A stretch of 32,525 bases of DNA from Saprospiraceae bacterium (lineage in GTDB: Bacteria > Bacteroidota > Bacteroidia > Chitinophagales > Saprospiraceae), in NCBI GenBank assembly GCA_027488135.1, contig JAIYCH010000012.1, forward strand, positions 1 through 32,525, given 5' to 3'. Below are positions 14,082 through 31,659 of the stretch, in pieces. The position numbers and the translations under genes were made by a program. The notes under the pieces were generated by a model, which had not been told where the DNA came from, ran no database searches, and saw only the letters and a program-made list of their open reading frames with translations. The number at the start of each line of letters is the position of its first letter. Position 1 is the stretch's first letter.

Positions 14082-14083
14082 AA

Positions 14084-14374
14084 TTATCCTCCTATTATTA
14101 CTGTTGGACAACCTAATACAATACTTCCTCCATGAGCACAGGTATCACCCATGCGTGCCGCGGGTTTTCCACCAATAAGCACAGTAGCTGAACCCTTCAT
14201 GATAGAATCTGGGGGACCTACGCAGATAGCGGAATCACCCATAATCGCAGCGGGTAAAAAAGCAATAAGCACGGTTGGCGAGCCAGGACCAATGATTGGG
14301 CCTCCGACATGAGGGACAGGGCCGGTAGTCATTGGGCACACGTGTAAATCAGTAATTCGGGCTGCAAATGGCAT
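14084..14374 (-). CDS. PAAR-domain spike tip protein, Afp10-like
   Basis: This 96-aa protein is a bare PAAR domain: 'MPFAARITDLHVCP' at the start, the eponymous 'PAAR' near residues 71-74 in 'GGKPAARMGDTCAHGG', and a glycine/proline-rich pattern of short beta strands. PAAR proteins sharpen the VgrG-like trimer with a cone that holds a metal ion; His and Cys residues at His11, Cys13 and in 'DTCAHGG' are candidate ligands. There is no C-terminal extension, hence no fused toxin. It sits 10 bp after the VgrG-like gene and runs into the gp25 ribosome site. Confidence 0.93.
   Translation of the reverse strand: MPFAARITDLHVCPMTTGPVPHVGGPIIGPGSPTVLIAFLPAAIMGDSAICVGPPDSIMKGSATVLIGGKPAARMGDTCAHGGSIVLGCPTVIIGG
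14088..14093 (-). promoter_or_regulatory. Shine-Dalgarno AGGAGG for the gp25 gene
   Basis: On the minus strand AGGAGG lies 6 nt before the ATG at 14081 and overlaps the last codons of the PAAR gene. Bacteroidota genes seldom carry such a strong site; none of the other starts I read closely in this series has one. It decides the gp25 start. Confidence 0.75.
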
Positions 14375-14384
14375 AACTTTTTTT

Positions 14385-16202: not shown

Positions 16203-16922
16203 TTATTTTTCCAAAGGTGGAAATAATAATTTTTCTCCAAGTTTAAGTCTTCTAAAAGAAGGAAGACCATTTATTTCTGCAATTTTCACATAGTATTTTT
16301 TGTCGCTATAAAATTCTTTACAAAGAGCAGGAAGGGTGTCACCAGACTTTATAGTTGGTATTCTCGTTATATCCGGACTTTGATATTTAGATTCTTCGAC
16401 ATCTCTATTGATAAATTCCTCTATGGTGATAGAAATTTCAGCCCTAACAGCACTGCCCGTCGAGTTGAAATAGGTGTATTCAATACCTAATTCGGTAACT
16501 ACTCCTTTCAAAGAAATGTCTCCCCATACCAAATGAACAAAGGGTGGTGCATGAGTAGAACGCAAAGGATATATAGTAACACCTTTCAATTTTTCAATGG
16601 AATCATCTAATCCCATGAAATAACTTATTTCAGAAGGCAACATCCAATACCAATCTCCGTCGGGCACACTTGGAATAACACCTGTTAAATCGAGCGTAAA
16701 TTTAAAGGACACCGTTTCCTTAAAATAAGTAGGTGATTTTTGTGGAATGGCACCGCCGTTGGCGCTTGCTGGTTCGTCATCCCCTTCATTTTTTCCAAAA
16801 CTACAAGAAACGCTGCTTGGATTAATCTGAAGTTGATAGGAATCGACACTCCAAAAATATCCCCAAGAGATATCCTCATATGTTTCGAAGGCAGTAATAG
16901 AAAGATTGAAAAATGAAAGCAT
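16203..16922 (-). CDS. LysM-containing tube/spike adaptor, Afp7-like
   Basis: A 239-aa protein with an N-terminal gp53/Afp7-like region ('YQLQINPSSVSCSFG' and 'VSFKFTLDLTGVIP') and a C-terminal LysM-type domain at about residues 187-237 ('IPTIKSGDTLPALCKEFYSD' to 'LKLGEKLLFPPL'). In Afp and PVC this protein joins the inner tube to the VgrG-like hub and contacts the wedge; its LysM fold acts as a protein contact there rather than as a wall-binding domain. The start overlaps the stop of the preceding DUF5908 gene in TAATG, so translation is probably coupled. Confidence 0.88.
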   Translation of the reverse strand: MLSFFNLSITAFETYEDISWGYFWSVDSYQLQINPSSVSCSFGKNEGDDEPASANGGAIPQKSPTYFKETVSFKFTLDLTGVIPSVPDGDWYWMLPSEISYFMGLDDSIEKLKGVTIYPLRSTHAPPFVHLVWGDISLKGVVTELGIEYTYFNSTGSAVRAEISITIEEFINRDVEESKYQSPDITRIPTIKSGDTLPALCKEFYSDKKYYVKIAEINGLPSFRRLKLGEKLLFPPLEK

Positions 16923-17122: not shown

Positions 17123-17608
17123 TCAATATATTCTGGTGTAATAGGAATAACTAAATTCAATAGATTCAAAAGCGTATTTTGAATCCTGCGCGTCAAAGTC
17201 ACTTATCGTCCATTTTGTCGGATAAGCGTTGTAAAATGCCCAAGCCATTGCAGGAGCGGAAGTGGTTGGTTCAATCAAATATACTATAATGGTTGCCGTT
17301 TGAATGCCGCCCATTAACATAGACATAGAACTGGTGCACCAGAGCGTTAATGGTGAAAAACCAGCTACTATACCACGTTCAAGTACGAGGGGAGTATAGT
17401 TTATATCTGTCGGCAGATGGTAAGTTGTCATATTTCCAGCACCCGCCTGAACAGCACTCGTATTTCTGGTGGTTGAAATACCAGACACTTTACTAAAATA
17501 ATTATCGCCAACTAATGGAACGGGAACACCAAAAGCAGTAGTAACAATATTAACTGAAAAGTTATACCCTGGTAGAGGCTGTAATCTTGGATTCGGGACG
17601 CCTGCCAT
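17123..17608 (-). CDS. CIS inner tube protein 2 (gp19 family, Afp5-like)
   Basis: A 161-aa protein of the phage T4 gp19/Hcp-like tube family. It has an N-terminal beta strand ('YNFSVNIVT'), the 'FSKVSGIST' turn, 'YTPLVLERGIVAG' corresponding to the conserved 'LKRG' loop, and a C-terminal 'YAFESIEFSYSYY' strand. In Afp the second tube protein (Afp5) forms the first ring(s) on the spike and initiates the tube; position next to the DUF5908 and LysM-adaptor genes suggests the same here. It is separated from tube 1 by a 113-bp gap with a strong hairpin, so it may be made at lower level, which suits an initiator. Confidence 0.88.
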   Translation of the reverse strand: MAGVPNPRLQPLPGYNFSVNIVTTAFGVPVPLVGDNYFSKVSGISTTRNTSAVQAGAGNMTTYHLPTDINYTPLVLERGIVAGFSPLTLWCTSSMSMLMGGIQTATIIVYLIEPTTSAPAMAWAFYNAYPTKWTISDFDAQDSKYAFESIEFSYSYYTRIY

Positions 17609-17649
17609 TTAATGTATTTTTCAGGTATTAAAAAAAATATATTAAAAAG

Positions 17650-17680
17650 AAAAACCCCAGGGAGGGAAACCTCCTCTAGG
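17650..17680 (-). terminator. Hairpin with T-run between tube 1 and tube 2 genes
   Basis: On the minus strand an arm CCTAG-A-GGAGG (17680-17670, one bulged A) pairs with CCTCC-CTGGG (17665-17656) around a TTTC loop, giving ten base pairs including one G-T. It is followed at once by G and TTTTT and, after one C, another TTTTT. This is the form of an intrinsic terminator, placed about 40 bp after the tube 1 stop within a co-directional gene series, so it may act as a partial terminator or processing/stability hairpin. A shorter T-run on the other side (ATTTTTAT) would make it weakly bidirectional. Confidence 0.72.
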
Positions 17681-17721
17681 ATTTTTATAATATACTTTAC
17701 CCCATTTTGTTGGGAATGTTA

Positions 17722-18192
17722 TTAAGCGGCTTCAATGGTAATTCCTTCACAAGCAAATACAATAGATTCAATCGCTGCATCACTTGTTTGAGAATTCATA
17801 TCAGTAGGCGTTATTTTCTTTGGAAATGCACCAGTTACCGTCCATGTCATTTTTGGAGAAGCGTCTTCATCCAATAATTTTATAACTAAGGTAAGCCTCT
17901 CATAAGTATTCAACTGAATTTTTATGAGCCAGTCATAGAAAGAATTGTCAGTGGTAAATACTCCTTTTTTGAGGGTAATATCACCATATTTCATTAGACC
18001 TGGCATCTTGATCGTTGAGTGAACAGGGCTATTTCCGTGACGATATTCTACTACATCGGTTTCAATATCTAAACCTGAAACTTCCTGAAAAGGAAGATCT
18101 GTTTGATCACCTATGTCAACAGAAAAGTAAAATTTTGGTAGAGGCCAATTTTGGTCTTGATCTGCACCAGTGCCTGGCGTTGGAGCTGCCAT
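17722..18192 (-). CDS. CIS major inner tube protein 1 (gp19 family, Afp1-like)
   Basis: A 156-aa gp19-fold tube protein. Visible family marks: 'FYFSVDIGDQ' strand, 'FQEVSGLDIETDVVEYRHG' (the conserved 'F.EVSGL..E...YR.G' block, residues 35-53), 'YGDITLKKGVF' loop and the C-terminal 'AAIESIVFACEGI' strand. Hexameric rings of this protein would build the length of the tube that is driven out of the sheath. The gene lies 32 bp after the sheath gene and before the hairpin at 17650-17680, so sheath and this tube gene may form a highly expressed pair. It matches the family consensus better than tube 2, hence the call as major tube. Confidence 0.93.
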   Translation of the reverse strand: MAAPTPGTGADQDQNWPLPKFYFSVDIGDQTDLPFQEVSGLDIETDVVEYRHGNSPVHSTIKMPGLMKYGDITLKKGVFTTDNSFYDWLIKIQLNTYERLTLVIKLLDEDASPKMTWTVTGAFPKKITPTDMNSQTSDAAIESIVFACEGITIEAA

Positions 18193-18224: not shown

Positions 18225-19724
18225 TTATGATTTTTGTTGTTGTTGTTGGAACGTGATGACGATAAATTCTGCCGGACGAACAATCGCTACTTTTACTGTA
18301 AGTTTTAACATACCGTCTAAGATATCATTGGCTGTCATTGTTGAACCTAATCCAATTTCAACAGAAAATGCATCGGTTGGCGTACTTCCCGCAAGAAGAC
18401 CCCCCTGCCACTGGTTATTAAGGAAATTCTCAATGGTTGCCTTAATGGATATCCATGTAGTGGCTGTATTTGGTTCAAAAACGTATCTTTCAGATGCAAT
18501 TTTAATGCTTTGCTCCAGGAATGTCATCGTCCTTCTCACTGAAATATATCTCCAATCCTGACTATTACCATCCAGGGTTCGTGCTCCCCAGACAATGGTT
18601 CCTTTTCCTGTAAAGGATCTGATGGCATTAATTGCTTTACCGTTCAATGGAAGGTTTAACTCTTCTTGTGCTTCATTGGTGATATTAACTACCGGAGATA
18701 TTACGTTACCAACACTAACATTAGCTGGTGATTTTGCAATATTTATAGAATTATCTACCATGGCATATACGCCAGCCATAGCAGCACTTGGAGGTAATAT
18801 ATTCAAAATTTCGCGCATATCAGCTAATATGCTTTTAAATGTTGGGCTTATTACTTTTAAAGTATCACTTAACAACAAAATTTCTACAGAGGTTGCTGCA
18901 GTGGCAATTTTTGCGATTTCCAATTTAATCAATTCTGCCCGGGCATCTCTGACTAATCCAGCAGACACACCATCTACAACTTCTTTAGTTAGTATTTCGA
19001 TAAGACCATCTTTATTGCTGATATTCGTAAAATCAACATCGCCTGCCTGAACTACTGTTGTTTGCAAGAATGGATAATAAGCTGCACCCCATTGAAGGAA
19101 ATTGGCGCCTACTCCTTCTCTGAACTTATTTATAATATCTTCGTCGTCAAATGTTCTTTCTTTGTCACCATTAAAAATATCCAAAATAGCAAACCGGTTC
19201 TTCATGGTGTAACCACAATGTAACAACATGGCTTGTTGAAGGGAAGCGCAATCTGCTTCTTCAAGTAAAATAGCCTCTGGAATTACCAATAAGGTAGGTT
19301 CCATATATTTCAAAAGAGTAACTAGACCTCTTCCGTTAGCAGGATCGTTAAAGTCAATAGCTTTGATTCCACTTCCATAATTTCCTATAGATACCACATA
19401 ACAATCACCCCCACCATTTGAATAAAAATGACGTAGCGCACTATGCAAAAGATACCTTGTGCCCTGGTCAACCGTCAAGGTGTAACCAGTATTGTCATTT
19501 GGCTCAATACTGAATTTTGTTTTTGGTGCACCACCAAACATTTCTTCGTATTCAGCTAATGAGGTAATTCTGGTTGGTACGTTAGTAAGTGGTTTGTTGC
19601 CTCTTGCCGCACGTGAAGTGTAACCAATAAACGCGGGTACTGCGGTTGATACTGGAACCACAGACGAAGAAAAAGCACTCTTTTCTTCAATATAGACTCC
19701 AGGCGTTGCTAATACTTTTGCCAT
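18225..19724 (-). CDS. Contractile sheath protein (Afp2/3/4-like)
   Basis: A 499-aa phage tail sheath family protein. The start 'MAKVLATPGVYIEE' with 'VPVSTAVPAFIGYTSRAARG' is the classic N-terminal sheath signature, and the end has the conserved 'MLKLTVKVAIVRPAEFIVIT' strand, the part donated to neighbouring subunits in the sheath mesh. Central 'ISVRRTMTFLEQSIKIAS' and 'TTWISIKATIENFLN' are the conserved C-terminal-domain helices. It is the only sheath gene in the window, while Afp has three. The last residues are a five-Gln tract and KS, coded by a ttg repeat on the + strand (about 18234-18248). An 87-bp AT-rich gap upstream could hold its own promoter. Confidence 0.96.
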   Translation of the reverse strand: MAKVLATPGVYIEEKSAFSSSVVPVSTAVPAFIGYTSRAARGNKPLTNVPTRITSLAEYEEMFGGAPKTKFSIEPNDNTGYTLTVDQGTRYLLHSALRHFYSNGGGDCYVVSIGNYGSGIKAIDFNDPANGRGLVTLLKYMEPTLLVIPEAILLEEADCASLQQAMLLHCGYTMKNRFAILDIFNGDKERTFDDEDIINKFREGVGANFLQWGAAYYPFLQTTVVQAGDVDFTNISNKDGLIEILTKEVVDGVSAGLVRDARAELIKLEIAKIATAATSVEILLLSDTLKVISPTFKSILADMREILNILPPSAAMAGVYAMVDNSINIAKSPANVSVGNVISPVVNITNEAQEELNLPLNGKAINAIRSFTGKGTIVWGARTLDGNSQDWRYISVRRTMTFLEQSIKIASERYVFEPNTATTWISIKATIENFLNNQWQGGLLAGSTPTDAFSVEIGLGSTMTANDILDGMLKLTVKVAIVRPAEFIVITFQQQQQKS

Positions 19725-19811: not shown

Positions 19812-20651
19812 TTATATAAAAATAAATTCCTGAACGAAAAACTTATCTTCCTTTTTGTCGTAATGTACCGAGGTGGGATTAGGACATGGTAAACTTTTAA
19901 TGAGTTGATTTTCAGTATTTTTATTTTTGTTTAGATAAAGACCGAGTATTTTCGTTGGTCTCTCTTTTAGCGGTAAACTATTTTCGGAGATAAATAATAA
20001 TCCATCTTTTCCATTAGGTAATTTTACCATCCCTTTTGAATTAAATGAAATACTGTCTTTTTGGTTTTTTTCGTAAATGTAAAGATAATCAGCTTCTTCC
20101 ATGTACCTGCTCGGGCCGTAAATAAAATATTTCCAAAAAACGTTTCTTTCTTTAAATTGAATAGAATGTTTAATAGGTAATAGTTTATTTCTTTGCGCTG
20201 AATCGAGACCAAATAGTTCATTTTCTTTATTAATACATAAACTTATTTTACCAATTATTCCCGCTTCGGAGGACTCTCGGCAAATATCAATAGACACTAA
20301 ATCAGTAGTATGTAATAATTCCCTTCCTGGAATATGCTCAAAATCAATCTGCTGATTTGAACTAAATGGGAGTTCAGTAAAATTTAAAAATTGAGGATTT
20401 TTATTTTTCAAGTAAAATGTTAAAGTCAATGCTCCGCCATAACAAAAATGATTGAAGTCTTTATTTGCATCTATTATTAATATAATTTTATTTGTTTCTT
20501 GCTTTGTAACCACACCATATTCTCCCAATAACTGTGAGGTTTCCTTACTCATCTCAAATGAAAAATCTCCACATTTGTTATGGATGTAGTACCCATGAAA
20601 TATAGAAATGGATAAAAGTTCCTGAAATTGAACGGTGTAATTTATTTGCAT
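19812..20651 (-). CDS. Unrecognised CIS-associated protein between cap and sheath genes
   Basis: I do not recognise a domain in this 279-aa protein. It has no signal peptide or membrane segment. It reads as mostly beta: 'MQINYTVQFQELLSISIFHG' at the start, a middle with 'LTLTFYLKNKNPQFLNFTEL', and a C-terminal 'FFVQEFIFI' strand. It starts 15 bp after the DUF4255 cap-family gene and ends 87 bp before the sheath gene, so it belongs to the structural part of the cluster. A cap adaptor, sheath-end or lumen protein is possible; AlgoCIS is known to have additional cap-side proteins, but I cannot show homology. Its codon use and base composition match its neighbours. Confidence 0.6.
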   Translation of the reverse strand: MQINYTVQFQELLSISIFHGYYIHNKCGDFSFEMSKETSQLLGEYGVVTKQETNKIILIIDANKDFNHFCYGGALTLTFYLKNKNPQFLNFTELPFSSNQQIDFEHIPGRELLHTTDLVSIDICRESSEAGIIGKISLCINKENELFGLDSAQRNKLLPIKHSIQFKERNVFWKYFIYGPSRYMEEADYLYIYEKNQKDSISFNSKGMVKLPNGKDGLLFISENSLPLKERPTKILGLYLNKNKNTENQLIKSLPCPNPTSVHYDKKEDKFFVQEFIFI

Positions 20652-20666
20652 TAGGATGGCTGCCTT

Positions 20667-21212
20667 TTATTTAGGTGTAAATAATAAAGGTATAATTTCT
20701 TCATTCATTGCATATTGATTGAAATTTAACATTCTAAATTTATATACAATGGAAGGTAAATATTTTCCGCCTAACATACTCCATATATTACTTAAAACAG
20801 GAAATTCCAGGTTGATTATTTCTACGGTTATTTTATCTACTTCAGCAGGAAGAGATGGGGTATTTTGCGGGTTAAAAGTATGCTGTCCCTGAAAAAAATA
20901 GATTACGGCAGAGAGAAATCTTAATCCTTCCCGATAGTTGTTTTCAGGAAAATTTGCGGCGAATAATACATATAGATTGATATAAATGGATGGGTTTGAG
21001 CCACTAAATTGATTATACCCCGTGTTTCTGATGAGTTTTTCTTCTTCGACATTGATCAGTGTAATAGATATTTTGTTTTCAGAGTCCATCGTTGAGGCAC
21101 CAGAACTATTCCCAATAGAGGTAACTATTACGCGGTCATCCATTTCGCCAAAGGAATTTTTTAAATATTCATTCAATTGGCTTCCAATAATAGGCAGAAC
21201 GTTTTGTATCAT
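20667..21212 (-). CDS. DUF4255 cap / tube terminator protein, Afp16-like
   Basis: A 181-aa protein of the DUF4255/Pvc16 N-terminal family. Visible marks are the start 'MIQNVLPIIGSQLNEYLKN', 'ISITLINVEEEKLIRN' (residues 48-63), 'PSIYINLYVLFAANF', and the C-terminal 'FPVLSNIWSMLGGKYLPSIV' with 'YKFRML'. In Afp/PVC the Afp16 protein caps the distal end of tube and sheath and stops elongation. It is about 100 residues shorter than Afp16, having the N-terminal domain only, as common for Bacteroidota homologues. It is 2 bp from the upstream small membrane-protein gene, tying the membrane-protein group to the structural genes in one transcription unit. Confidence 0.9.
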   Translation of the reverse strand: MIQNVLPIIGSQLNEYLKNSFGEMDDRVIVTSIGNSSGASTMDSENKISITLINVEEEKLIRNTGYNQFSGSNPSIYINLYVLFAANFPENNYREGLRFLSAVIYFFQGQHTFNPQNTPSLPAEVDKITVEIINLEFPVLSNIWSMLGGKYLPSIVYKFRMLNFNQYAMNEEIIPLLFTPK

Positions 21213-21214
21213 GG

Positions 21215-21475
21215 TTATGGGTTTCCTGAGGTGGCATCATGTACACCAACTAATTTTAATAATGCTTTAACGACAATTCTAACAATGTAAACACAAATAA
21301 ACATCACCAGCCACCCAATCATAAAAAGCTGGACGGTAAATACCTTTTCCACTTCGTTTAAACCTGGATTTGCGCTGGTTAATTTTAGCAATCCCAGGAA
21401 AACAAATGAAAGGGGAACGGCAAGTACCGAAGCTATAATAAACCACATGAGTTCTTTTAAAATTGTTTTTTTCAT
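21215..21475 (-). CDS. Small two-helix membrane protein
   Basis: An 86-aa protein with two hydrophobic helices (about residues 11-31 and 47-70). A longer frame opens at 21712, but that part lies within the GH18 gene in another frame and its translation looks random; I place the start at ATG 21475-21473 ('MKKTILKELMWFIIAS'), 8 bp after the GH18 stop. Both ends should be cytoplasmic or both periplasmic, with a short charged loop between helices. No family is recognised. Its close packing between the GH18 and cap genes suggests a membrane partner of one of them; its size and topology would also fit a holin-like protein, but nothing in the sequence proves that. Confidence 0.7.
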   Translation of the reverse strand: MKKTILKELMWFIIASVLAVPLSFVFLGLLKLTSANPGLNEVEKVFTVQLFMIGWLVMFICVYIVRIVVKALLKLVGVHDATSGNP

Positions 21476-21483
21476 AGAGATGG

Positions 21484-23223
21484 TCAGGGTCTTTTTATAT
21501 TGATATTTACTTGTAATTTTTGGATAAAGTAAAATACAAACGCACCAAAAAGGAAAGCTATCAAAAGGGAAATTCTTTGATCGGTAAACCAGTTCATCAC
21601 ACTGAGCAAGGGAACTATGAGCAGTGTCATAATAAGCATAAAAAGATATCTGAAGAATTGTTGGCCTAAAATGCCTGTTCTTACACGCCAGTCTGCAAAG
21701 GCTATAACCCATCCAATTACCACAGAAAGGGCAAAAAGCAGGTAAGTTAAAGTTAAGATATCTCGGTATCTCATCATAAAACTACCCATTGAAACGGGGA
21801 AACCATCGGCTTCATTTATTGGATTGACAACCGCTGTTGTGTCAGTAGTAAATTGGTTGTCAAGTAATTGCCATAAATCTGTATAGCCATTATCGTAGCC
21901 CAAAGCCCAAATGCCTACTCCTTTTAGTCCATAGCTCAAGGCTAAATTATACTTTTTCTCTAAGGAGGCTGCATTATCGAACCAACATTCCACCGATGTG
22001 CTGTCGCCAAACTCCAGGAAAAAATAATTGGTCATACTAACAAAATCATATTGGGGTGTATAATTTGCTCCGTAAAGATTCATTACTTCCCGATAAGGGA
22101 TATCCTTGTCATAATAGGTGTCATATACTCCTTTACTATTGATTTTACCTTTCCATTGAGCGCCGTAATAGGGGAGGGCCAAAACGGTTTTACCCATATT
22201 CAGCTGATTTTTTGCATAATAATCTAAGGTGCTTTGTAAACTTATCCCATTCCTATTGGTCGTTCTTAAGGGTGATACAGCGCCGGTAATTCCTTTACCT
22301 TTATGATAATCATAACCCATAATAACCATTAAATCTACCAATTCGCCTAATTTTACATTGTCAAATGCTTCCCGTGTACTGTATGAAGGTAAGGTTATGG
22401 AGAGAAAAACCTTACCTGAAGGCATTTTATTAGAAAGATTTGATCGAAGTAAGGTTACAAAATTGACTAAAGATTCTTTGTGCTTCTCCGGTACATTCTC
22501 AAAATTTAAATCGACGCCATCTGCATTTCTCGCAAGGATTAAGCTGGCAATACTATCAGAAAAGGTATTCCATGACGCTGGGTTCGATAAAAATCGGTCA
22601 TTTTCAGAGACACCATGACTCGCCATGCTTAGCAGCACCCGGGTTCCATGAGCCTTCGCAGAATCGATCATGGAGGTCGTTCTCCACTCTTGCATTTGTG
22701 CAGGATTAGTATAAGAACCTGTCTCTGGATCAACGATATAAGCAAAATAGGCAACGGTACTCAATAACGAAAAATCATACGATTCCCAGGCTGATCCCAT
22801 CCAATGCGGATGCCAGCCAAACACTTCATATTTTTTATTTAATTTTCTGTTCGTTGGACTTTTGATAAAATATATCTGTTGTACGGAATCCCAGTAAAAA
22901 TTATTAGCTTTTAATTTATTTGGGTTATTTGGATTTAAAAAATCATATAAATAAGCATACCTGTTTAGCATGTTTTGCTGTTCGGGGGTAGCCAGACTTT
23001 CTTTCATTTTTTTTTGATCCTCAGAAGATAATTCTTCGTCGCCCATACCCAGCGCCTTTTGAATTTTTGACGCGTCCTTATATATATATCGCAACGTGGA
23101 TTCGGTCTGTCTGCTACTTCTTTTAGCTTTAAAATAGGCATCTTTTGCCTCACAAGAATAAAACAGAAGACTTAACACGATAAAATAAATGACAAATCTA
23201 AAGGGTAGGATTTGCTTGATCAT
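21484..23223 (-). CDS. GH18-family hydrolase-like protein with C-terminal membrane anchor
   Basis: A 579-aa protein with an N-terminal export signal (hydrophobic residues 8-22, possible lipobox 'LFYSC' with Cys24), a GH18 barrel (about 130-455) and three C-terminal membrane helices (about 489-509, 523-545, 551-568). The GH18 catalytic strand reads DGVDLNFE at 235-242: the acid Glu242 is kept, but the last Asp of DxxDxDxE is Asn. 'MVIMGYDYH' matches the later barrel strand, and 'GLKGVGIWALGYDNG' the last. GH18 proteins of this shape include spore-cortex GlcNAcases as well as chitinases; peptidoglycan or chitin is thus the likely substrate if active. Export plus anchor would hold the barrel in the periplasm on the inner membrane. 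Its ATG overlaps the upstream stop (ATGA, 23220-23223) and an 8-bp gap precedes the next gene, so it is tightly bound to this locus. Confidence 0.85.
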   Translation of the reverse strand: MIKQILPFRFVIYFIVLSLLFYSCEAKDAYFKAKRSSRQTESTLRYIYKDASKIQKALGMGDEELSSEDQKKMKESLATPEQQNMLNRYAYLYDFLNPNNPNKLKANNFYWDSVQQIYFIKSPTNRKLNKKYEVFGWHPHWMGSAWESYDFSLLSTVAYFAYIVDPETGSYTNPAQMQEWRTTSMIDSAKAHGTRVLLSMASHGVSENDRFLSNPASWNTFSDSIASLILARNADGVDLNFENVPEKHKESLVNFVTLLRSNLSNKMPSGKVFLSITLPSYSTREAFDNVKLGELVDLMVIMGYDYHKGKGITGAVSPLRTTNRNGISLQSTLDYYAKNQLNMGKTVLALPYYGAQWKGKINSKGVYDTYYDKDIPYREVMNLYGANYTPQYDFVSMTNYFFLEFGDSTSVECWFDNAASLEKKYNLALSYGLKGVGIWALGYDNGYTDLWQLLDNQFTTDTTAVVNPINEADGFPVSMGSFMMRYRDILTLTYLLFALSVVIGWVIAFADWRVRTGILGQQFFRYLFMLIMTLLIVPLLSVMNWFTDQRISLLIAFLFGAFVFYFIQKLQVNINIKRP

Positions 23224-24410
23224 TCTGTATATATTTTAAAATATCGAACCAATTCCGGTATTTTGTTTACAACTTGTTCTGTAAATGGCTTTCCTTCCAG
23301 ATAAATACTTTTAAAAAAAATGGATTGTTCTACTATTCCATTGGTATTGAGGCAAGCCAAATATAATAATTTTTTGTTGTATTTTGAAGTGGGCTCTATT
23401 ATCTTACCATAATTTGGACCGTTATTGGGTGCAAAAGTTAAGGTGGATGGAGAATATTTTTCGTTACGGGTCAATTTTAACGCATTAGATTCATTAACAA
23501 AGGCACAGGTCAGGCCTTTAGGTTCGGAATTAGGTAGAAAATGAATTTTCCCGGACGCATAATCTGTAAGTGCATCCTTTTCGGCTATCACGGACTTAAA
23601 TTCAGTGATATTTTTTTGCTGATATCCAATCCAATAAACCCAGCCTTTCCCGTTTTTTGCCTCATTAAAGGGTATAGGAAACATAAAATAAGGTGTTTTT
23701 GTAAGATCTAAGGTGGCTCCAATGCTGAATGATTGTTCTGCTAAAGGCAGGTACTGCAATTCTTCCCTGGTGATCATGGCGGTATCGAGGGTAAATAAAG
23801 TATCTACAGCCTCCTTAATTACTATTTTCTTTTCCTTTATTAAATTTCGCACAAATAACTTCGTTTTGAGAGGAAAATAATTCCTGTTATTCAGTTTAAC
23901 GGTTATTTCCCCCGTTTCCATAGCAGGTATTTTTACATAAACCTTTTCTTTTTTTGCCAACTTTAATTTTGAATATACGGGTATTTTTCCGAAAGATACC
24001 TCTACAGAACTTAATTTAAAAAAGGATGAATGTTTAATATATATTTGTAATGTATCTCCTTTATTTACTGGATAAGTATATTCCAGTTTATCTTTTTTTG
24101 GCACTAATACTTGAACAGTAGCATGAGTAACGGAATCTTTTTTAGGATTTTTAATCATTGACTTAATCTCACTTAAGGTATAATTTAATATTAAAGTATC
24201 ACCTAATTTTAATTTTTCTTGAAGGCTATCAATAAATGATGTCTTTGGTAGAGATTTATCTTTAATAATGGTAGAAACAGCTTTTTCAGCTTTATCTGTA
24301 AGTTTATCGAGTAAATCAGCTTGTTTTATTTGAGCTATACCATTTGTTAAACAAAATAAAAGGCATATAACAAATAGGAATGGTGATATTTTAGAAGTCA
24401 ATGGTATCAT
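23220..24410 (-). CDS. Exported protein of unknown function in the CIS locus
   Basis: A 396-aa protein with an N-terminal signal peptide (hydrophobic core 10-22, likely cleavage after 'NGIAQ' at residue 27). Residues 28-60 form a charged helix; the rest alternates short beta strands with Lys-rich linkers ('VKIPAMETGEITVKLNNRNY' looks like an Ig-type strand pair), and the C-terminal half has 'GWVYWIGYQQ' and 'LLYLACLNTNG'. I recognise no family. It would be periplasmic or surface-exposed and is encoded between the DUF4407 and GH18 membrane proteins; the 4-bp overlap with the GH18 gene suggests coupled translation and similar amounts, hence a possible partner in an envelope complex. Confidence 0.7.
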   Translation of the reverse strand: MIPLTSKISPFLFVICLLFCLTNGIAQIKQADLLDKLTDKAEKAVSTIIKDKSLPKTSFIDSLQEKLKLGDTLILNYTLSEIKSMIKNPKKDSVTHATVQVLVPKKDKLEYTYPVNKGDTLQIYIKHSSFFKLSSVEVSFGKIPVYSKLKLAKKEKVYVKIPAMETGEITVKLNNRNYFPLKTKLFVRNLIKEKKIVIKEAVDTLFTLDTAMITREELQYLPLAEQSFSIGATLDLTKTPYFMFPIPFNEAKNGKGWVYWIGYQQKNITEFKSVIAEKDALTDYASGKIHFLPNSEPKGLTCAFVNESNALKLTRNEKYSPSTLTFAPNNGPNYGKIIEPTSKYNKKLLYLACLNTNGIVEQSIFFKSIYLEGKPFTEQVVNKIPELVRYFKIYTE

Positions 24411-24423
24411 AGTGCTTTCATTA

Positions 24424-25512
24424 TTATTTTTTATTTAAAAGTTGCTTAACCAACTTTTCTTGAAGTTGAGCTAACTGAATGGCTGTTTCTTCTTTTTTTG
24501 ACCTTTCAGCTGTTGGTTTTTCTTGTTCTTTTTTATAAGAGGCATTCACTTCTTTAGCTCGTTTCAAGGAAGAATCTGGAGGTGATTTTGATTCTTGAAT
24601 CTGCCCAAAATAAGCCATTTTATATGGGTATTCTTTCCCTTGAAGTAAATGATCATAAGGGCCAATGGGCGCAAATAATTTAGATAAAATAGGGGCAGTT
24701 TCTAGGAAAATAAAGAGCAATAAAATTGCAAAAGAAGTATTTCCTGATAGGGCAGACAAAGCCTCCAATCTGGCTAATAATCCTTTGGAAAAATGTTTAC
24801 TTAGCTCCTGGTTTTCTTCATTTTTTTCGTCGTTCAACTTTGCTTTTTCTTTAGACAATAAAGATAATCTGGTATTTATTTTAGATTCAATGATCTGATG
24901 TTCTTTTGTGTACGATTCATATTTCTGTTGTTTTCTTACACATTCACTGCCTCTGCCTGAATTACCTGTGCCACAGGTGCCATCACATTCGCATTTATAT
25001 TGAGCATAATATGATTCTTTTAATTGGAAACTTTTATTTAATTCAGCTTGGTATTTATTTTCATTACGTTCAATTTGTCTGAATTTTAGTTCATATTGCT
25101 CATCTATAAGAAGGGCTTTTTCTCTTTTTATCTCTAATAATTTAAAATCTATTTCTGATTGGAATAATTTTAATTCAAGTGGTTTAGAAATAACCAAAGC
25201 AATAAAAACAGCCATTAATATTCTCGGCAATGCTTGTAAAAATTCAGCTAAGGGCCTTCCTTTTTTGCGGAAACTGGAGACTAAAAAACGGTCCAAATTA
25301 AAAATCAATGCGGCCCAGAGTAATGATAAAAAAACAGAGGATAAAACTTGTTCTAAAATAAGATAAAATGCAAAATAGGCCGACAGACCTGCCATTAAAG
25401 TGGTAAAATATACACTGGCACCAATGCCTGCATATTTTATTTTTTCCGATTCCGGACATTCTGCCATAATGTCCTTACTGACGCCTGCAGCAAAATGAAA
25501 TATTCTGGACAT
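24424..25512 (-). CDS. DUF4407 family membrane protein
   Basis: A 362-aa DUF4407 protein. Three helices lie at about 30-52, 56-76 and 96-112, with the family mark 'LIFNLDRFLV' (69-78), then a long charged coiled coil (about 117-250) and a fourth helix (258-280), then a Lys/Glu-rich tail. The loop in the coiled coil has 'YKCECDGTCGTGNSGRGSEC' (172-191), the DUF4407 Gly-rich block but with four Cys (174, 176, 180, 191). With an even number of helices, N- and C-terminus lie on one side and the coiled coil on the other, most likely the periplasm. The function of the family is unknown; the coiled coil could span part of the periplasm. It is 48 bp downstream of the first gene of the series and 13 bp upstream of the exported protein. 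Confidence 0.85.
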   Translation of the reverse strand: MSRIFHFAAGVSKDIMAECPESEKIKYAGIGASVYFTTLMAGLSAYFAFYLILEQVLSSVFLSLLWAALIFNLDRFLVSSFRKKGRPLAEFLQALPRILMAVFIALVISKPLELKLFQSEIDFKLLEIKREKALLIDEQYELKFRQIERNENKYQAELNKSFQLKESYYAQYKCECDGTCGTGNSGRGSECVRKQQKYESYTKEHQIIESKINTRLSLLSKEKAKLNDEKNEENQELSKHFSKGLLARLEALSALSGNTSFAILLLFIFLETAPILSKLFAPIGPYDHLLQGKEYPYKMAYFGQIQESKSPPDSSLKRAKEVNASYKKEQEKPTAERSKKEETAIQLAQLQEKLVKQLLNKK

Positions 25513-25560
25513 TTAAAAAAAATTCAATAATCTAAATAAAATAAAGGTATCAATTATTAA

Positions 25561-26574
25561 TCAAAAAAGTAGTGTTCTTCTTTTAAAGAAGCTGAAAATT
25601 GAACGTGCAGCTTTTTCTGTTTTAGGCATTTCTTCCTTTATATCTTCTTCTAAAATATAAAAATGAAGATCTATATTTTTTATATCAAATACCGTTTTCC
25701 ATTTAAAATGTAACGATGTATTTTCGTTACATTGCATATCTCTGAAGCCATTTGATGGTATTTCTCCCCAGGTATCTTCATTTAAAATACCCATTTGTTC
25801 AGCCTCCCAATATAGTCGAAGGGTACAAGCTGGAGGAATAGCAAAGTGAAATGGAATGTCAGGATGGCCGCTCAAGGGAATAAATTCCTGCGAAGGGTCT
25901 GTGGCTATAAAAACAGAAAAGGTTAATCCTAAAGAGGTTAAAGCCTTGATAAAAATTCTTTTTTCCGTTATTATATTGTCATTTTTAGCCTGGATGCTAA
26001 ACAAACAATCGTTGTTTATCTGTATTTCCATACTCCCTTTTAGGGGTAATTCTATTTTTTGGGGATATAAAATGACCGATTGAGCTTTTTCAACTTCCCA
26101 AAATATTTGTGCTTTTTCTCCTTTTTTAACCCACTCCTGGGAAGCATAACCTACTATCTCCGGACTACCGCTTTGATGGACTAACCGTTTTGCTTTTTCT
26201 TTAATCTGATGGTATATAGCCTCATCTCGCCTTAAATGGGCTTGAATATCAGTGTCATTGTGGTAATCAACCCCATTTGAATTCAGAGCAATTCGTTTAT
26301 CTATATGAACGAAACAGGCGACATCCTGTTCAGCGTCTTCTGTACAATATAGTTCACCACCTGCAGCGGACATGCGCATGAGGGTGTTTGTTGTTTTAAT
26401 TGATTTATTCCCATTTTCCATAATAACGATGAATTCAACAAAGATTCCCTTGCTTTGAAGGTTATAAATGTTTGTTGAAATTTCTTCCAGTACCGCATAA
26501 GGGATTATACCGACAATATGAAATTGGCAAGAACGTAAGGCTATCTTTATTTTATTGTTATAAACTTCGAGCAT
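25561..26574 (-). CDS. PLD-fold-like protein with Ig-like domain, first gene of the CIS series
   Basis: A 337-aa protein with no signal peptide. Residues 1-100 resemble a phospholipase D-like fold: 'IKIALRSCQFHIVGIIPY', then 'LQSKGIFVEFIVIMENGNK', then 'RMSAAGGELYCTED', then 'VHIDKRIALNSNG', the place where the HxK(x4)D catalytic motif should be. That motif is not intact, so I expect no catalysis. Residues 145-215 look like the Bacteroidota Ig-like module ('EWVKKGEKAQIFWEVEKAQS', 'LPLKGSMEIQINNDCLFSI'). The C-terminal part (215-337) is unassigned and ends in a basic, aromatic tail. It begins at the divergent intergenic region and leads the series, so it may be a regulatory or scaffolding factor. 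The fold call is tentative. Confidence 0.6.
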   Translation of the reverse strand: MLEVYNNKIKIALRSCQFHIVGIIPYAVLEEISTNIYNLQSKGIFVEFIVIMENGNKSIKTTNTLMRMSAAGGELYCTEDAEQDVACFVHIDKRIALNSNGVDYHNDTDIQAHLRRDEAIYHQIKEKAKRLVHQSGSPEIVGYASQEWVKKGEKAQIFWEVEKAQSVILYPQKIELPLKGSMEIQINNDCLFSIQAKNDNIITEKRIFIKALTSLGLTFSVFIATDPSQEFIPLSGHPDIPFHFAIPPACTLRLYWEAEQMGILNEDTWGEIPSNGFRDMQCNENTSLHFKWKTVFDIKNIDLHFYILEEDIKEEMPKTEKAARSIFSFFKRRTLLF

Positions 26575-26695: not shown

Positions 26696-29600
26696 ATGGC
26701 ATTAATAGGCAATTCACTTAAACCTTTTCCTGGTTGCAGATCATTTTATGAATCTGAACAATCTTCTTTTTATGGAAGAATGAAACAAGTGGATGATGTT
26801 CTTTTATTATTACATAAACACAAATTTATAGCCTTAACAGGTCAGATTGGTTCAGGAAAGTCTTCGTTTTTACAATCTGGCCTCATTCCGGCCCTAAAAA
26901 AGGGCCATAACGGTCTTGCCGGGAAGGAATGGGTGATATGTAATACCAGACCAGGATTGGCTCCCATTAAAAATCTTGCCCACGCCTTATCAGAAAATAA
27001 TTTGTTAAACCCCTCCATTAAATCCACACCAGAGCAACGTTTATGGGTAGAGAAGAACCTAAAAGAGGGTATTTCGGGACTAGAATCTATATATCGTCGG
27101 TCAGAAATTTTTGGAAAGAAAAATCTAATTATCATTATCGATCAGTTTGAAGATTTGTTTTTGCATACCGATCGGTTTAATAATGCCGCTGTTCTTAACG
27201 AAGAAACCAATCAATATATTAATGCCATTACGGGGGCTAATTTTGCAGAAGATATTGCTGTATATGTCGTTATTGCTTTGGGGGCAGAAAATATTATTGA
27301 CATCTCTCCTTACCGACGTTTACAAGACTTGATGAACCAAGGTCAATATCTATTACCACGAATAAATGGTATCGATGTAAAACGTTTGATCCTCAATCCG
27401 TTGTCAGGCACAAACTTGAGTATTAGCCCGGAATCAATGGACTCCCTTCTTGCTCAGTTTGGTTCCGATATGCGCCTCTTACCAAATCTTCAGTTCCTAA
27501 TGTTTAAAATCTGGACGACTTTTCAGCATTCTGCCGATGGGGAAATAGTCATTCAACCATTAGATTTGGCTGAAGTGGGAAATTTGCAACATTGTTTTGC
27601 TGTACATTTGGAAAATCATTACGACAGCCTTGATACAAGGCAAAAGCTTGTTTTTGAAAAATTGTTTAAAGCCATGCTGTCCGATGATTCTCTTGGCAAG
27701 CTTACTCAGCCCAAGACATTAACTCATTTAAGTTCTATCTGTGAGGCTTCTGTAGATGAAATTTCGTATTTATTAAATGATATTTTTGAAGGTGAACGTA
27801 ATTTTTTGGATATTTTACCCCCCGATGTATCTCTGTTACAAGGAAATTCTACAAAAATCTACCACAGGAATAGTCTTATTTTTTTGAAAAATGAAAATAT
27901 ATTTATACACTGGGATAGATTTAGAACCTGGCTTGAAGAGGAAAAGGAATCCAGAGATATTTATAGAGGTCTTATTACCGATCAATTAAGGTATGATGAA
28001 GGCAAAACATCTTTGCTCAGACCTCCCGATCTTGATTTTATCTGGCAATGGTATCAACATATTCAACCTACAAAAATTTGGGGTGAATTTCTTGTTCCTG
28101 GATATCAGAACGCGATCGATTATCTTATTTTAAGCCATTCTACCTATAAAAATGAAATGGTTTTAAAGGAAAATGCCAGAAAAAATGAAATAAAAAGGTA
28201 TCGACGCAATATGTTGATTGGTGTTATTCTTGCATTGGTAATTCTTGCGGTGGTGTCTTCCTTATATTTAAAAGCCGTCGAGGAAAGAAAAGAAACAGAA
28301 AGGGCGAATGCAAATTTAGCTAAGGAGAAAAAGCGAATTGATAAACTAAATTCGTCTTTGCAAGAGACACAGGATAGTCTGAATGGAACAATAGTTCAAA
28401 GAAATAAGGTTGTCAGCGAATTATTGACTAAGGAAAAAACCATTAAAATTCAAAATGTTGATTTAATTCGTAAAGGGTCTCAGTTAGAAAAATCTGCAAG
28501 CACAATTAAAACGCAAAATCAATCACTTATAACTAAAATTAAGGAAACCGAAGTAGCAAAATCTAAAGCGGAAGCAGCAAGGGAAAAGGAAATAATTGCC
28601 ACCAATAAGGCAACAGATCGGGAAAAATTTAGCAATATCAAAAATGATCTTTTTGTACTTACCGGCGAAATGGCAGCCTCTGAAAATCCATTGGAACTCA
28701 TTGCAAAATTAAATACTGTAGTTACTAATTACGAGGCGTTTTCTCTTAAAGTTGAAGGCGTTGTATTACCTAATAACAGCCTTTTCAAATTATTAAATCT
28801 GGCTTCCAGGAAATTAGAAGTAAAGAAAAATATAACGTCTCAATTAATAAAATCTAATGCCGGACTTAGATCCGTTGTAGTCAATAACGGCGGTTTCCTA
28901 TGTGCTGGTGATGAAGGCAAAATGTTTAAAAATACCCAGCAAAATGTGTCAGGTATAGGGCAACGTGTAAGAACCATTTTGCCTTTAAAAGGAGAAAGTG
29001 GAACCTTACTGGGTGCGTTCGATGGCGCCGTGTATGCTATCTATCCAGGTAAGTCTCCTTTAAAGATTGTCAGTTCTTCCTCGGTAAAGCCCGTAGTTTC
29101 TCTGCTGAATTCTTTTCAAAATGGAACCTATTTATTGGCCGGGCAAAATGAATTAACGCTCTTTTCTTTGGAAAAAGGAGTGCTTGCAAAATCTTTATTA
29201 AAAGATGATTTACTGGCTATTTTTCCAATAAATGGTCGGAGTGAGTTTTTGATATCAACTCGTAAAGGACTTTACACATGGAAGCCAGGGGACGAAGTTA
29301 ATCAGTTACTTTCCATAGGAAAAGGCGAGTTCGCTTACCCTGTTTCTGCTATTGAAATTTCAGAAAATATGGTGTCCCTTGGATTTAAAAATGGGAAAAT
29401 CCTTCTCTTTCCTTTAAATGCTTTCCTGCAGAATCCTGAAATATTTCCTTCTCAAAAATTTGTATATCACAATGCTGAAATTACAAAAATGAAGTTGTTT
29501 AAAGGAAACCTTTTTTCTGCTAGTTTGGACAAATCAGTTCAATTCGTAGATCTTTCTTTACCAAATCCTAACTCTTTCGTAGTTAAATTGGTTGAAAATA

Positions 29601-29749
29601 ATAGTTGGATTTGGGATATATCTATTCAGGAAAATAAAAATGGAGTAGATTATTTGCTTTGCGCAGATGAAAATGGATCACTGAAAAAATATTTCATTAC
29701 AGCAGATGTTCATTTAAATTATATTAATGATTTAGCAAAAAGTAATTAA
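26696..29749 (+). CDS. nSTAND1-type NTPase with transmembrane helix, coiled coil and beta-propeller
   Basis: A 1017-aa signalling-type NTPase. Walker A is GQIGSGKS (residues 49-56) and Walker B 'LIIIIDQFEDLF' (144-155), the form seen in novel STAND NTPase 1 proteins, after an N-terminal 'FYGR' box. The NTPase and its helical part reach to about 480. A single membrane helix ('NMLIGVILALVILAVVSSLY', about 505-525) is followed by a charged coiled coil (about 527-650) and a C-terminal region (about 690-1010) of repeating four-strand units such as 'LLAGQNELTLFSLEKG' and 'LFSASLDKSVQFVDLSL', a degenerate WD40-like propeller. With no signal peptide the NTPase should be cytoplasmic and the propeller periplasmic. 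Known STAND proteins oligomerise on sensing a ligand. It is divergent from the CIS series; no AAA+ ATPase (Afp15) is present there, so this could be a regulator or a stand-in, but its family differs. It is 27 bp upstream of the GGT gene. Confidence 0.82.
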   Translation: MALIGNSLKPFPGCRSFYESEQSSFYGRMKQVDDVLLLLHKHKFIALTGQIGSGKSSFLQSGLIPALKKGHNGLAGKEWVICNTRPGLAPIKNLAHALSENNLLNPSIKSTPEQRLWVEKNLKEGISGLESIYRRSEIFGKKNLIIIIDQFEDLFLHTDRFNNAAVLNEETNQYINAITGANFAEDIAVYVVIALGAENIIDISPYRRLQDLMNQGQYLLPRINGIDVKRLILNPLSGTNLSISPESMDSLLAQFGSDMRLLPNLQFLMFKIWTTFQHSADGEIVIQPLDLAEVGNLQHCFAVHLENHYDSLDTRQKLVFEKLFKAMLSDDSLGKLTQPKTLTHLSSICEASVDEISYLLNDIFEGERNFLDILPPDVSLLQGNSTKIYHRNSLIFLKNENIFIHWDRFRTWLEEEKESRDIYRGLITDQLRYDEGKTSLLRPPDLDFIWQWYQHIQPTKIWGEFLVPGYQNAIDYLILSHSTYKNEMVLKENARKNEIKRYRRNMLIGVILALVILAVVSSLYLKAVEERKETERANANLAKEKKRIDKLNSSLQETQDSLNGTIVQRNKVVSELLTKEKTIKIQNVDLIRKGSQLEKSASTIKTQNQSLITKIKETEVAKSKAEAAREKEIIATNKATDREKFSNIKNDLFVLTGEMAASENPLELIAKLNTVVTNYEAFSLKVEGVVLPNNSLFKLLNLASRKLEVKKNITSQLIKSNAGLRSVVVNNGGFLCAGDEGKMFKNTQQNVSGIGQRVRTILPLKGESGTLLGAFDGAVYAIYPGKSPLKIVSSSSVKPVVSLLNSFQNGTYLLAGQNELTLFSLEKGVLAKSLLKDDLLAIFPINGRSEFLISTRKGLYTWKPGDEVNQLLSIGKGEFAYPVSAIEISENMVSLGFKNGKILLFPLNAFLQNPEIFPSQKFVYHNAEITKMKLFKGNLFSASLDKSVQFVDLSLPNPNSFVVKLVENNSWIWDISIQENKNGVDYLLCADENGSLKKYFITADVHLNYINDLAKSN

Positions 29750-31621: not shown

Positions 31622-31659
31622 TTAGCACCGAAGGGATTCTTATTTTTCTTCGGTGCTAA
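31622..31659 (-). terminator. Terminator hairpin overlapping the end of the cytochrome-LRR gene
   Basis: A perfect 12-bp inverted repeat (TTAGCACCGAAG at 31622-31633, CTTCGGTGCTAA at 31648-31659) with a 14-base loop. On the minus strand it is followed by GTCTTTTT, the form of an intrinsic terminator for the cytochrome-LRR gene, whose stop codon (31642-31640) lies in the loop. On the + strand it begins 6 bp after the GGT stop and could block read-through there, but no T-run follows on that side. Confidence 0.85.

What the first reader, a model, noticed from the sequence alone, without database searches (positions are those of the whole stretch)
21215..26574. Candidate envelope module built into a contractile injection locus
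Five genes lead the CIS series: PLD-like/Ig-like, DUF4407 coiled-coil membrane protein, exported unknown, membrane-tethered GH18, and an 86-aa two-helix protein. Gaps are 48, 13, -4, 8 and 2 bp, the last one into the cap gene. Afp and PVC lack such genes; T6SS uses TssJLM. A dedicated set of inner-membrane and periplasmic proteins suggests that this injector is membrane-anchored, or has its own wall-passage or release system. I know of no described function for this set as a whole. Co-transcription and spacing are seen; the role is inferred.
Basis: partly seen in the sequence, partly recalled or inferred. Interest (0 to 1): 0.78.

Follow-up and report, generated by a model that had tools for sequence, protein, structure and literature searches.

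The report
Envelope gene set for bacterial injector
Many Bacteroidota that carry one branch of phage-tail-like injector keep a set of envelope genes with it, probably the part that holds the injector in the cell envelope and lets it reach through the wall, although this has not been tested in these genes.

Summary
In detail: five minus-strand genes (26574-21215; gaps 48/13/-4/8/2) lead into the Pvc16-type cap gene of a contractile injection system (CIS). The set is not local. PLD/Ig, DUF4407, exported Exp and membrane-tethered GH18 stand in this order in 25 of 56 sheath-selected Bacteroidota loci outside Bacteroidales (two with an unassigned ORF in Exp's place). GH18 with late membrane helices tracks the CIS branch: 48 of the 56, 0 of 14 Proteobacteria, no full-length match in 10 Bacteroidales; in an even phylum sample 6 of 395 genomes have it, all six with CIS. 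Parts are separable: DUF4407 mostly occurs elsewhere, and one relative without a CIS cap gene carries Exp-PLD-DUF4407 beside defence genes. GH18's catalytic Glu is lost in 16 of 66 distinct copies, and the PLD motif in 30 of 30 CIS-linked copies examined, so much of the block looks structural. Papers citing a 2024 Science study (not held) report a trans-envelope complex for Aureispira's T6SS subtype iv; Aureispira MAGs carry Exp-GH18-GH18-TM86 beside this CIS. Best reading: the block is, or contains, such a docking complex.

The parts
25561..26574 (-). PLD/Ig: 337-aa cytosolic-looking protein, degenerate PLD-like domain plus Ig-like tail, HKD residues lost
24424..25512 (-). DUF4407: four predicted TM segments, long coiled-coil-like stretch with four Cys between TM3 and TM4
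23220..24410 (-). Exp: exported-looking 396-aa protein, divergent member of a family found before GH18; lipobox-like start in some relatives (by eye)
21484..23223 (-). GH18-3TM: lipobox-like N terminus, GH18 domain (motif DGVDLNFE), three C-terminal TM with a DWRVR loop
21215..21475 (-). TM86: 86-aa two-helix membrane protein directly before the cap
20667..21212 (-). CIS cap (Pvc16_N)
19812..20651 (-). cap-adaptor-like protein, relative of SalCis16b (E 1e-10)
18225..19724 (-). sheath, nearest solved relative 9r9h E 2e-158
17123..18192 (-). two tube proteins (gp19-like)
16203..16922 (-). CIS tube / LysM protein
13668..16193 (-). spike (GPD/OB), PAAR tip and gp25 wedge protein
9877..13653 (-). 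baseplate J-like protein (AlgoCIS 7aeb_G E 6e-88)
9127..9870 (-). short fibre-like protein (bd2133 E 4e-07)
6346..9120 (-). 924-aa protein, second baseplate-type protein by position only (no Pfam match)
1504..6342 (-). tape measure protein (CIS_TMP)
26696..29749 (+). divergent nSTAND1 protein with one predicted TM and a C-terminal half that is propeller-like in relatives; often near the PLD/Ig + DUF4407 pair

Best explanation
The block encodes an envelope-spanning docking complex for this branch of CIS, which works in place, like a T6SS of the subtype-iv kind, rather than only as a released particle. GH18-3TM and TM86 sit in the inner membrane with conserved cytosolic parts; the GH18 domain and Exp reach into the wall and periplasm, binding the wall and, where the catalytic acid is kept, possibly cutting it locally; DUF4407 would add a periplasmic coiled-coil stalk and the dead PLD/Ig protein a cytosolic adaptor to the baseplate or cap. 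The nSTAND protein may sense the envelope and gate the system. Shown here: gene order, conservation, tie of GH18-3TM to the CIS branch, predicted TM segments, loss of catalytic residues. Inferred: topology, contacts, docking and mode of firing.
For: GH18-3TM is present in 48 of 56 sheath-selected Bacteroidota loci or genomes outside Bacteroidales (30 in the locus, 18 by whole-genome search) and in 0 of 14 Proteobacteria with related sheaths at E 1e-20; on the sheath tree presence needs 5 changes for 93 scored rows. Reverse test: 6 of 395 phylum genomes have it, all six among the 77 with a cap gene, p 4.7e-5 without correction for kinship; leaving out G230, whose copy shows only two late helices, 5 of 5 and p 2.5e-4. 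In nine genomes the row PLD/Ig-DUF4407-Exp-GH18 lies away from the cap (in one of them the cap is off the contig): in seven directly behind the tape measure and an ATPase-like ORF, in two with no CIS gene in the fetched stretch. Catalytic Glu is replaced by eight different residues in 16 of 66 distinct copies while the protein is kept, as expected of a structural or binding part. PMC11566945 and PMC12237407 (passages; one section of the first) cite Lien 2024 for a trans-envelope complex of T6SS, the first naming Aureispira's subtype iv; Aureispira MAGs L196 and L198 carry Exp-GH18-GH18-TM86-cap.
Against: No localisation, interaction or phenotype data. Structure prediction could not be run. The Aureispira paper is not held; strain CCB-QB1 was not examined, and I do not know which genes that paper assigns. 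DUF4407 was found in 0 of 4 Saprospira/Aureispira-type genomes searched (G027, G061, G062, G081) and full-length PLD/Ig in 0 of 7 (weak partial matches in 5), so two of the five are not needed there. Exp, PLD/Ig and DUF4407 relatives also stand in a row in L072, beside defence genes, in a genome without a cap match. A ten-row branch shows GH18-3TM without the other four nearby, away from the CIS in six of the ten; a full-length PLD/Ig match lies elsewhere in one of these ten genomes. Six of 56 loci have the CIS without an intact GH18-3TM found (drafts). AlgoCIS was purified and never seen at the membrane; for SalCIS, the nearest solved relative, only PDB entries were seen and its mode is unknown to me.
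Confidence: 0.55

Rival explanations
1. Release cassette: GH18-3TM is a tethered wall hydrolase and TM86 a holin-like protein; together they lyse a few cells and free the CIS particles, as phage lysis genes do.
For: TM86 is 86 aa with two TM segments, the size of small holins (recalled). GH18's best solved relatives include the cortex-lytic enzymes 4s3j, 4s3k and 3cz8. The genes sit with a phage-tail-like machine.
Against: Catalytic Glu is lost in 16 of 66 distinct copies with the protein kept. TM86 matches no PHROG family below E 0.2, and those are of unknown function. GH18 carries an export signal and late membrane helices. No spanin-like gene was recognised by eye; none was searched for. 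GH18-3TM without recognised partners persists in one branch.
Confidence: 0.14
2. Sensor and trigger module: nSTAND, dead PLD/Ig, DUF4407 and perhaps Exp form a membrane-bound signalling unit derived from a defence-type unit, which senses envelope damage and switches CIS firing or expression; GH18 and TM86 are the docking parts.
For: nSTAND lies in 17 of 38 fetched loci with PLD/Ig + DUF4407 (35 CIS-linked, 3 not; all 17 CIS-linked) against 1 of 138 CIS loci without block genes; loci are not all independent. In L052, L053 and L270 nSTAND-PLD/Ig-DUF4407 run together, divergent from Exp-GH18. Outside CIS, L072 (Exp-PLD-DUF4407 by Drt3b) and L055 (PLD-DUF4407 by type I restriction genes) keep the HKD motif.
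Against: In most loci with the pair, DUF4407 and PLD/Ig are contiguous with Exp and GH18. 21 of the 38 loci show no nSTAND gene within reach, some because the contig ends.
Confidence: 0.18
3. Accessory wall-passage or protection function that is not physically part of the injector: the proteins loosen or guard the cell's own wall when the tube passes, and are carried with the CIS for convenience.
For: GH18 keeps its Glu in 50 of 66 distinct copies; T6SS of type i borrows the housekeeping transglycosylase MltE (PMC10781749 section 13).
Against: The tie of GH18-3TM to one CIS branch and the repeated loss of catalysis point to a structural partner.
Confidence: 0.1

Closest known systems
T6SS subtype iv of Aureispira sp. 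CCB-QB1 (Lien 2024, not held; known here through passages of PMC11566945 and PMC12237407)
   Same: Phage-tail-like CIS of the eCIS-related group with a trans-envelope complex; Aureispira MAGs carry Exp-GH18-GH18-TM86 beside a CIS of this branch.
   Different: Whether those genes make that complex is not known to me; PLD/Ig and DUF4407 are not seen beside the CIS there.
TssNQOPR membrane complex of T6SS type iii (PMC10781749, abstract and sections 13 and 16 read)
   Different: No such family among the Pfam or NCBIfam matches of the window block; other CIS type; includes a GH18 and a PLD-like protein.
CisA of Streptomyces and Hbor_38620 of haloarchaea
   Same: Membrane proteins coded in CIS clusters, needed for firing (CisA) or proposed as anchor (Hbor_38620).
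   Different: Single membrane proteins; not compared by sequence here.
AlgoCIS (PMC8894135, passages read)
   Same: Same phylum, cap plus cap adaptor, similar baseplate protein.
   Different: Seen free in the cytoplasm, never at the membrane; its sheath is more distant (E 8e-100) than that of SalCIS (2e-158).
GH18 cortex-lytic enzymes (4s3j, 4s3k YaaH, 3cz8 YdhD)
   Same: Among the nearest solved GH18 domains, with 4wiw and 4q6t.
   Different: Late TM helices; Asn at the Asp two before Glu in 30 of 50 distinct Glu-bearing copies; Glu lost in 16 of 66.

Membership tests
CIS of the eCIS / T6SS-iv related group | Pvc16-type cap, sheath, tube, LysM tube protein, spike, PAAR, gp25, J-like baseplate, CIS tape measure | tested here: met
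CIS of the eCIS / T6SS-iv related group | AAA+ ATPase of the cluster | tested here: met
   not in the window; homologue 49% identical to L251's, unlinked, at G000:C43:144-1457
T6SS mode of action (subtype iv) | Particle docked to the inner membrane of the producing cell | not testable with these tools
   needs tomography
T6SS mode of action (subtype iv) | Trans-envelope complex encoded with the CIS | tested here: inconclusive
   candidate set present, GH18-3TM tied to the CIS branch; composition of the known complex not available
T6SS type iii TssNQOPR | Homologues of TssN, O, P, Q, R | tested here: inconclusive
   no such family among Pfam or NCBIfam matches; that the libraries hold such models is recalled, and folds were not compared
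T6SS type i TssJLM | Homologues of TssJ, TssL, TssM | tested here: not met
   no such Pfam match among the four larger block proteins (TM86 was scanned against PHROGs and NCBIfam, and a relative of it against Pfam); that Pfam holds these models is recalled
Glycoside hydrolase 18 | GH18 domain | tested here: met
   PF00704 E 4e-33
Glycoside hydrolase 18 | Catalytic motif DxxDxDxE (recalled) | tested here: inconclusive
   window DGVDLNFE: Glu kept, Asp two before it is Asn; activity untested
Phospholipase D superfamily | HKD motif | tested here: not met
   absent at the aligned place in 20 of 20 CIS-linked members aligned (L187 has the pattern elsewhere) and absent anywhere in 10 further ones; present in 2 of 2 non-CIS members that have the PLD part
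Phospholipase D superfamily | PLD fold | tested here: inconclusive
   1 of 15 members hits PLDc_2 at 0.0065; profile hits FAM83B at 0.0026 (a pseudo-PLD, recalled) and an endonuclease at 0.16; intact relative L072 at 2e-26
Holin-endolysin lysis cassette | Recognisable holin next to a muralytic enzyme | tested here: inconclusive
   no holin family hit; size and two TM would fit

The most novel reading that the evidence does not exclude
A membrane complex of a contractile injector unrelated to TssJLM and TssNQOPR, assembled from recycled parts: a wall-binding GH18 that has lost catalysis many times, a two-helix inner-membrane protein, and an exported scaffold, a dead PLD and DUF4407 taken over from a defence-type Exp-PLD-DUF4407 unit and wired to an nSTAND envelope sensor that decides when the injector fires.
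Probability: 0.25. Interest if true: 0.82.

Novelty: new variant of a known kind. Interest (0 to 1): 0.64.

Why it matters
How CIS of the eCIS-related group come to be cell-anchored in some bacteria and released in others is open. A gene set that tracks one mode would let the mode be predicted from sequence; the haloarchaeal anchor Hbor_38620 has been proposed for that use in archaea. It also names genes to delete in culturable environmental bacteria, and it shows a wall enzyme and a PLD-like protein apparently kept as structural parts after loss of catalytic residues.

Tried and rejected
Rejected: 'block is local to one genus'. Rejected: 'nearest CIS relatives have lost the block'. Their caps had TM86 or a like ORF only, but whole-genome search found one full-length GH18-3TM in each of 9 of 9 such genomes (L172, L174-L178, L180, L183, L194) and in the 3 known carriers put in beside them; the stretches fetched showed the four-gene row in eight of the nine (L249-L256) and GH18 with an nSTAND gene only in L194's (L257). 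L173's genome, is the ninth with the row (L258). Rejected: GH18 as a universal wall-digesting enzyme. Rejected as unlikely: GH18 or Exp as injected cargo, since both carry export signals and GH18 late TM helices (inference). Rejected as chance: two-helix ORFs before the caps of L099, L115 and L159, which do not resemble TM86 by eye. Withdrawn on recheck: that Exp is CIS-only (L072); this moved the best explanation from 0.58 to 0.55 and the sensor rival from 0.15 to 0.18.

Led nowhere: phage families, NCBIfam, solved structures for Exp, defence models for the window proteins (a 0.009 hit for nSTAND). Literature: DUF4407 with contractile injection gave 0 papers, SalCIS 0; other searches. The key Science paper is not held.

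Limits: genes in fetched loci come from my own greedy ORF picker with first ATG/GTG/TTG starts; it hid TM86 in the window and GH18 in L270 behind longer frames. TM segments come from a simple hydropathy window. In 7 of the 77 phylum cap loci my cap query found no cap, so no gene order was printed; their genomes were still covered by the profile search. TM86 was never searched genome-wide; Exp and PLD/Ig only by single sequences in 148 relatives, PLD/Ig by profile in 30 more. In one search L223 and L207 were scored as without GH18-3TM.
Full report
WHAT IS THERE. The five ORFs, their strand, order and gaps are as stated. They precede a Pvc16_N cap gene and a CIS set: cap-adaptor-like protein, sheath, two tubes, LysM protein, spike, PAAR, gp25, J-like baseplate, a short fibre-like protein, a 924-aa protein and the tape measure. 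The nearest solved sheath is SalCIS 9r9h (E 2e-158), then AlgoCIS (8e-100). The window lies in a 4.2-Mb draft genome with one DUF4407 match; its AAA+ ATPase homologue is unlinked. Divergent from the block is an nSTAND1 protein with one predicted TM segment; a member beside a relative's block has WD40 matches (L250).

THE PROTEINS. PLD/Ig (337 aa) has no Pfam match itself, but a relative with an intact HKD motif hits PLDc_2. In 20 of 20 aligned CIS-linked members the His and Lys of HKD are absent at the aligned place (L187 has the pattern at another place), and 10 further CIS-linked members have no such pattern at all (some are close kin); 2 of 2 non-CIS members with the PLD part keep it; a third non-CIS match, L076, covers only the tail. 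DUF4407 has four predicted TM segments; the loop between TM2 and TM3 carries 4 K/R and 1 D/E, which suggests a cytosolic loop and a periplasmic stretch of 141 residues with four Cys (topology inferred). Exp looks exported; it is linked to other Exp proteins only weakly pairwise (L057 against a same-genus copy E 2e-06, L062 6e-05, window against L057 0.005), and by profile and position. GH18-3TM has DW[RK]VR between TM1 and TM2 in 22 of 30 aligned rows, DWRVR in 15. Among 78 GH18 ORFs with at least two late TM segments (66 distinct copies) the catalytic Glu is kept in 62 (50 distinct); the 16 losses are Q 5, N 2, T 2, R 2, S 2, L 1, I 1, Y 1; among the 50 distinct Glu copies the residue two before is Asn in 30, Asp in 18, Thr 1, His 1. 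The window copy reads DGVDLNFE. TM86 is a two-helix protein.

DISTRIBUTION, RELATIVES. In 148 related genomes DUF4407 is over its cut-off in 50 and Pvc16_N in 32. Outside the own genus, 3 of 43 DUF4407 genomes have it on a contig with CIS-block genes (G029, G033, G100); contig breaks could hide more. Exp by single sequence matched in 8 of 148, seven of the own genus and one weak match with stops; PLD/Ig in 11, four of them weak and outside the genus; GH18 in 30. The GH18 matches that reach the TM part were those lying by CIS caps or, in split drafts, on contigs of the same cluster. Against a CIS-only block: L072, in G131, which has no cap match, carries an Exp protein with a signal-like start (profile E 1e-19), a PLD/Ig relative with HKD and DUF4407 in a row, beside Drt3b and an HSP90-like ATPase gene. 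L055 has PLD/Ig (HKD) and DUF4407 beside type I restriction genes.

DISTRIBUTION, PHYLUM. In 395 genomes drawn evenly from the phylum, 77 have a cap, at 80 places. The 77 places not in hand were fetched; gene order could be printed for 70 of them. Near the cap the block genes showed only in L110 and L161, besides the window and L047 in hand. A profile search of the same 395 genomes gave 102 with a GH18 match at E 1e-20; GH18 with late TM is in six (G000, G085, G230, G234, G300, G423), all with a cap. G230's match stops before the TM part and its copy (L110) shows two late segments; G234 and G423 have theirs behind the tape measure and a 462- or 518-aa ORF. G339 also matched into the TM part, with stops, and its ORF shows no late TM; six other strong matches that were opened show none, one of them (L271) running off its contig. 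The other matches were not opened; none reaches the TM part of the profile. Fisher 6 of 77 against 0 of 318, p 4.7e-5; without G230 p 2.5e-4; kinship not corrected.

DISTRIBUTION, SHEATH-SELECTED. A scan for the sheath alignment kept the best 80 of 566 confirmed loci: 14 Proteobacteria (Algicola checked), 10 Bacteroidales, 56 other Bacteroidota, by record titles. Of the 56, GH18-3TM is in the locus in 30 (in L169 only as a C-terminal piece at a contig end), found by whole-genome search in 18, not found as an intact full-length match in six (L207 has two GH18 fragments), not tested genome-wide in two (L179, L181). Proteobacteria 0 of 14; Bacteroidales 0 of 10 for full-length matches, though L223 carries a remote GH18 (E 4e-21) with three late TM segments near its cap, which speaks for a wider or older spread. 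The order PLD/Ig-DUF4407-Exp-GH18 occurs next to the cap in 14 of 56 (L170 cut by a contig end; L189 seen through L259), in two more with an unassigned ORF in Exp's place (L184, L197), and away from the cap in nine (L172-L178, L180, L183; seen in L249-L256 and L258; L173's cap is off its contig): 25 in all, 23 outside the own genus. In seven of the nine it follows the tape measure and an ORF of 449-485 aa that is an AAA ATPase in the two checked; in L249 and L258 no CIS gene lies in the fetched stretch. L244's genome has the genes split into two divergent runs (L270). Among the carriers are the isolates Psychroflexus salis, Fulvivirga imtechensis and Parachryseolinea silvisoli (the last with an unassigned ORF in Exp's place). 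Saprospira and Aureispira relatives have Exp, two GH18 and TM86 without PLD/Ig or DUF4407 beside the CIS. A ten-row branch (two Fulvivirga, Reichenbachiella, others) has GH18-3TM without recognised partners nearby; in six of the ten it is away from the CIS, and one of the ten genomes (L206's) has a full-length PLD/Ig match elsewhere.

TREES. On 96 sheaths, module rows (labelled by adjacency, so L136 and L138 counted as without) need 3 changes, shuffled mean 16. On 108 sheaths with genome-wide scoring, 63 rows with and 30 without GH18-3TM, 15 untested, presence needs 5 changes; a 26-row branch of Proteobacteria, Bacteroidales and two others was scored as lacking it throughout, L223 included. 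Support values are SH-aLRT of a quick search, and several long branches are uncertain.

PARTNERS. nSTAND genes lie in 17 of 38 fetched loci with PLD/Ig and DUF4407 (35 CIS-linked, 3 not; none in the 3), 5 of 49 with GH18 and no PLD/Ig, 0 of 20 with DUF4407 but no PLD/Ig, 1 of 138 CIS loci without block genes; loci overlap and differ in length. The short fibre-like protein is 238-303 aa in complete copies; its last part (131-247) is at least as conserved as its middle in 16 of 18 relatives compared, but less than its first 65 residues in 17 of 18. It is also present where the block is absent, so it says little about the block.

LITERATURE. PMC11566945 (passages and the Discussion) states that the T6SS subtype iv of Aureispira sp. 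CCB-QB1 has a large trans-envelope complex; PMC12237407 (abstract and passages) cites the same study among others for T6SS trans-envelope complexes. Lien 2024 itself was not seen; that it reports reversible insertion elements is recalled from its abstract. PMC10781749 (abstract and two sections) describes TssNQOPR and says that how that complex crosses the wall is unknown. PMC8894135, PMC7394362, PMC8213781, PMC12210884, PMC8831229, PMC8894136, PMC13314943, PMC12374797 and PMC10508125 were seen in passages, PMC12998442 in abstract and outline. PMC8213781 lists a possible chitinase and a peptidoglycan hydrolase as eCIS-associated toxins, which is another role. None of the passages seen describes a membrane-tethered GH18 or a DUF4407 protein with CIS; the searches for such mention were made, in an open-access library only. 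I do not claim that the block is undescribed.

CONCLUSION. The firm result is a GH18 protein with late membrane helices tied by distribution to one CIS branch, with Exp and TM86 as frequent and PLD/Ig, DUF4407 and nSTAND as less frequent partners, some of which also live apart from CIS. The docking-complex reading is the best fit to anatomy, distribution, repeated loss of catalysis and the Aureispira reports, but no step of its mechanism was tested here.

Noticed in passing
L061:5588-6894 (same genome as L200, Saprospira grandis Lewin): An insertion element (HTH_Tnp_1 and rve integrase core) lies between the GH18 domain and the TM segments of the second GH18 gene; in strain DSM 2844 (L201) the gene is one ORF of 725 aa. 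Possible link to switching of predation (recalled).
   Followed up: partly
L072:3237-13170 and L055:318-11054: PLD (intact HKD) + DUF4407 outside CIS, in L072 preceded by an Exp relative: next to a Drt3b reverse transcriptase and an HSP90-like ATPase, or next to type I restriction genes. Perhaps an undescribed defence unit.
   Followed up: partly
L063:12857-17474 and L204: Four genes, the first with a weak EndoU nuclease match, sit between GH18 and TM86: possible cargo and immunity genes.
   Followed up: no
L066, L086, L088, L089: Tandem DUF4407 genes, followed in L066, L088 and L089 by a 551-640-aa protein with three or four TM segments, with no CIS gene recognised: another DUF4407 operon type.
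   Followed up: no
G005:C102 and G005:C147: A same-genus genome carries two copies of the CIS cluster start, one on a contig that ends inside GH18.
   Followed up: no
window 29777-31615 and 31640-32503: Beyond nSTAND lie a 612-aa protein that looks like a gamma-glutamyltransferase and a 287-aa protein with LRR-like text (both by eye, not searched); relatives of both also flank the block in L067 and L068.
   Followed up: no
L223:4856-6886: A Bacteroidales CIS locus has a remote GH18 with three late TM segments 1.7 kb before the cap, which hints at an older or transferred GH18-3TM.
   Followed up: no
L032:3937-9813 (G100): In another CIS branch a tape measure is followed by a putative nuclease effector, an AAA ATPase and a DUF4407 gene without PLD/Ig.
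   Followed up: partly
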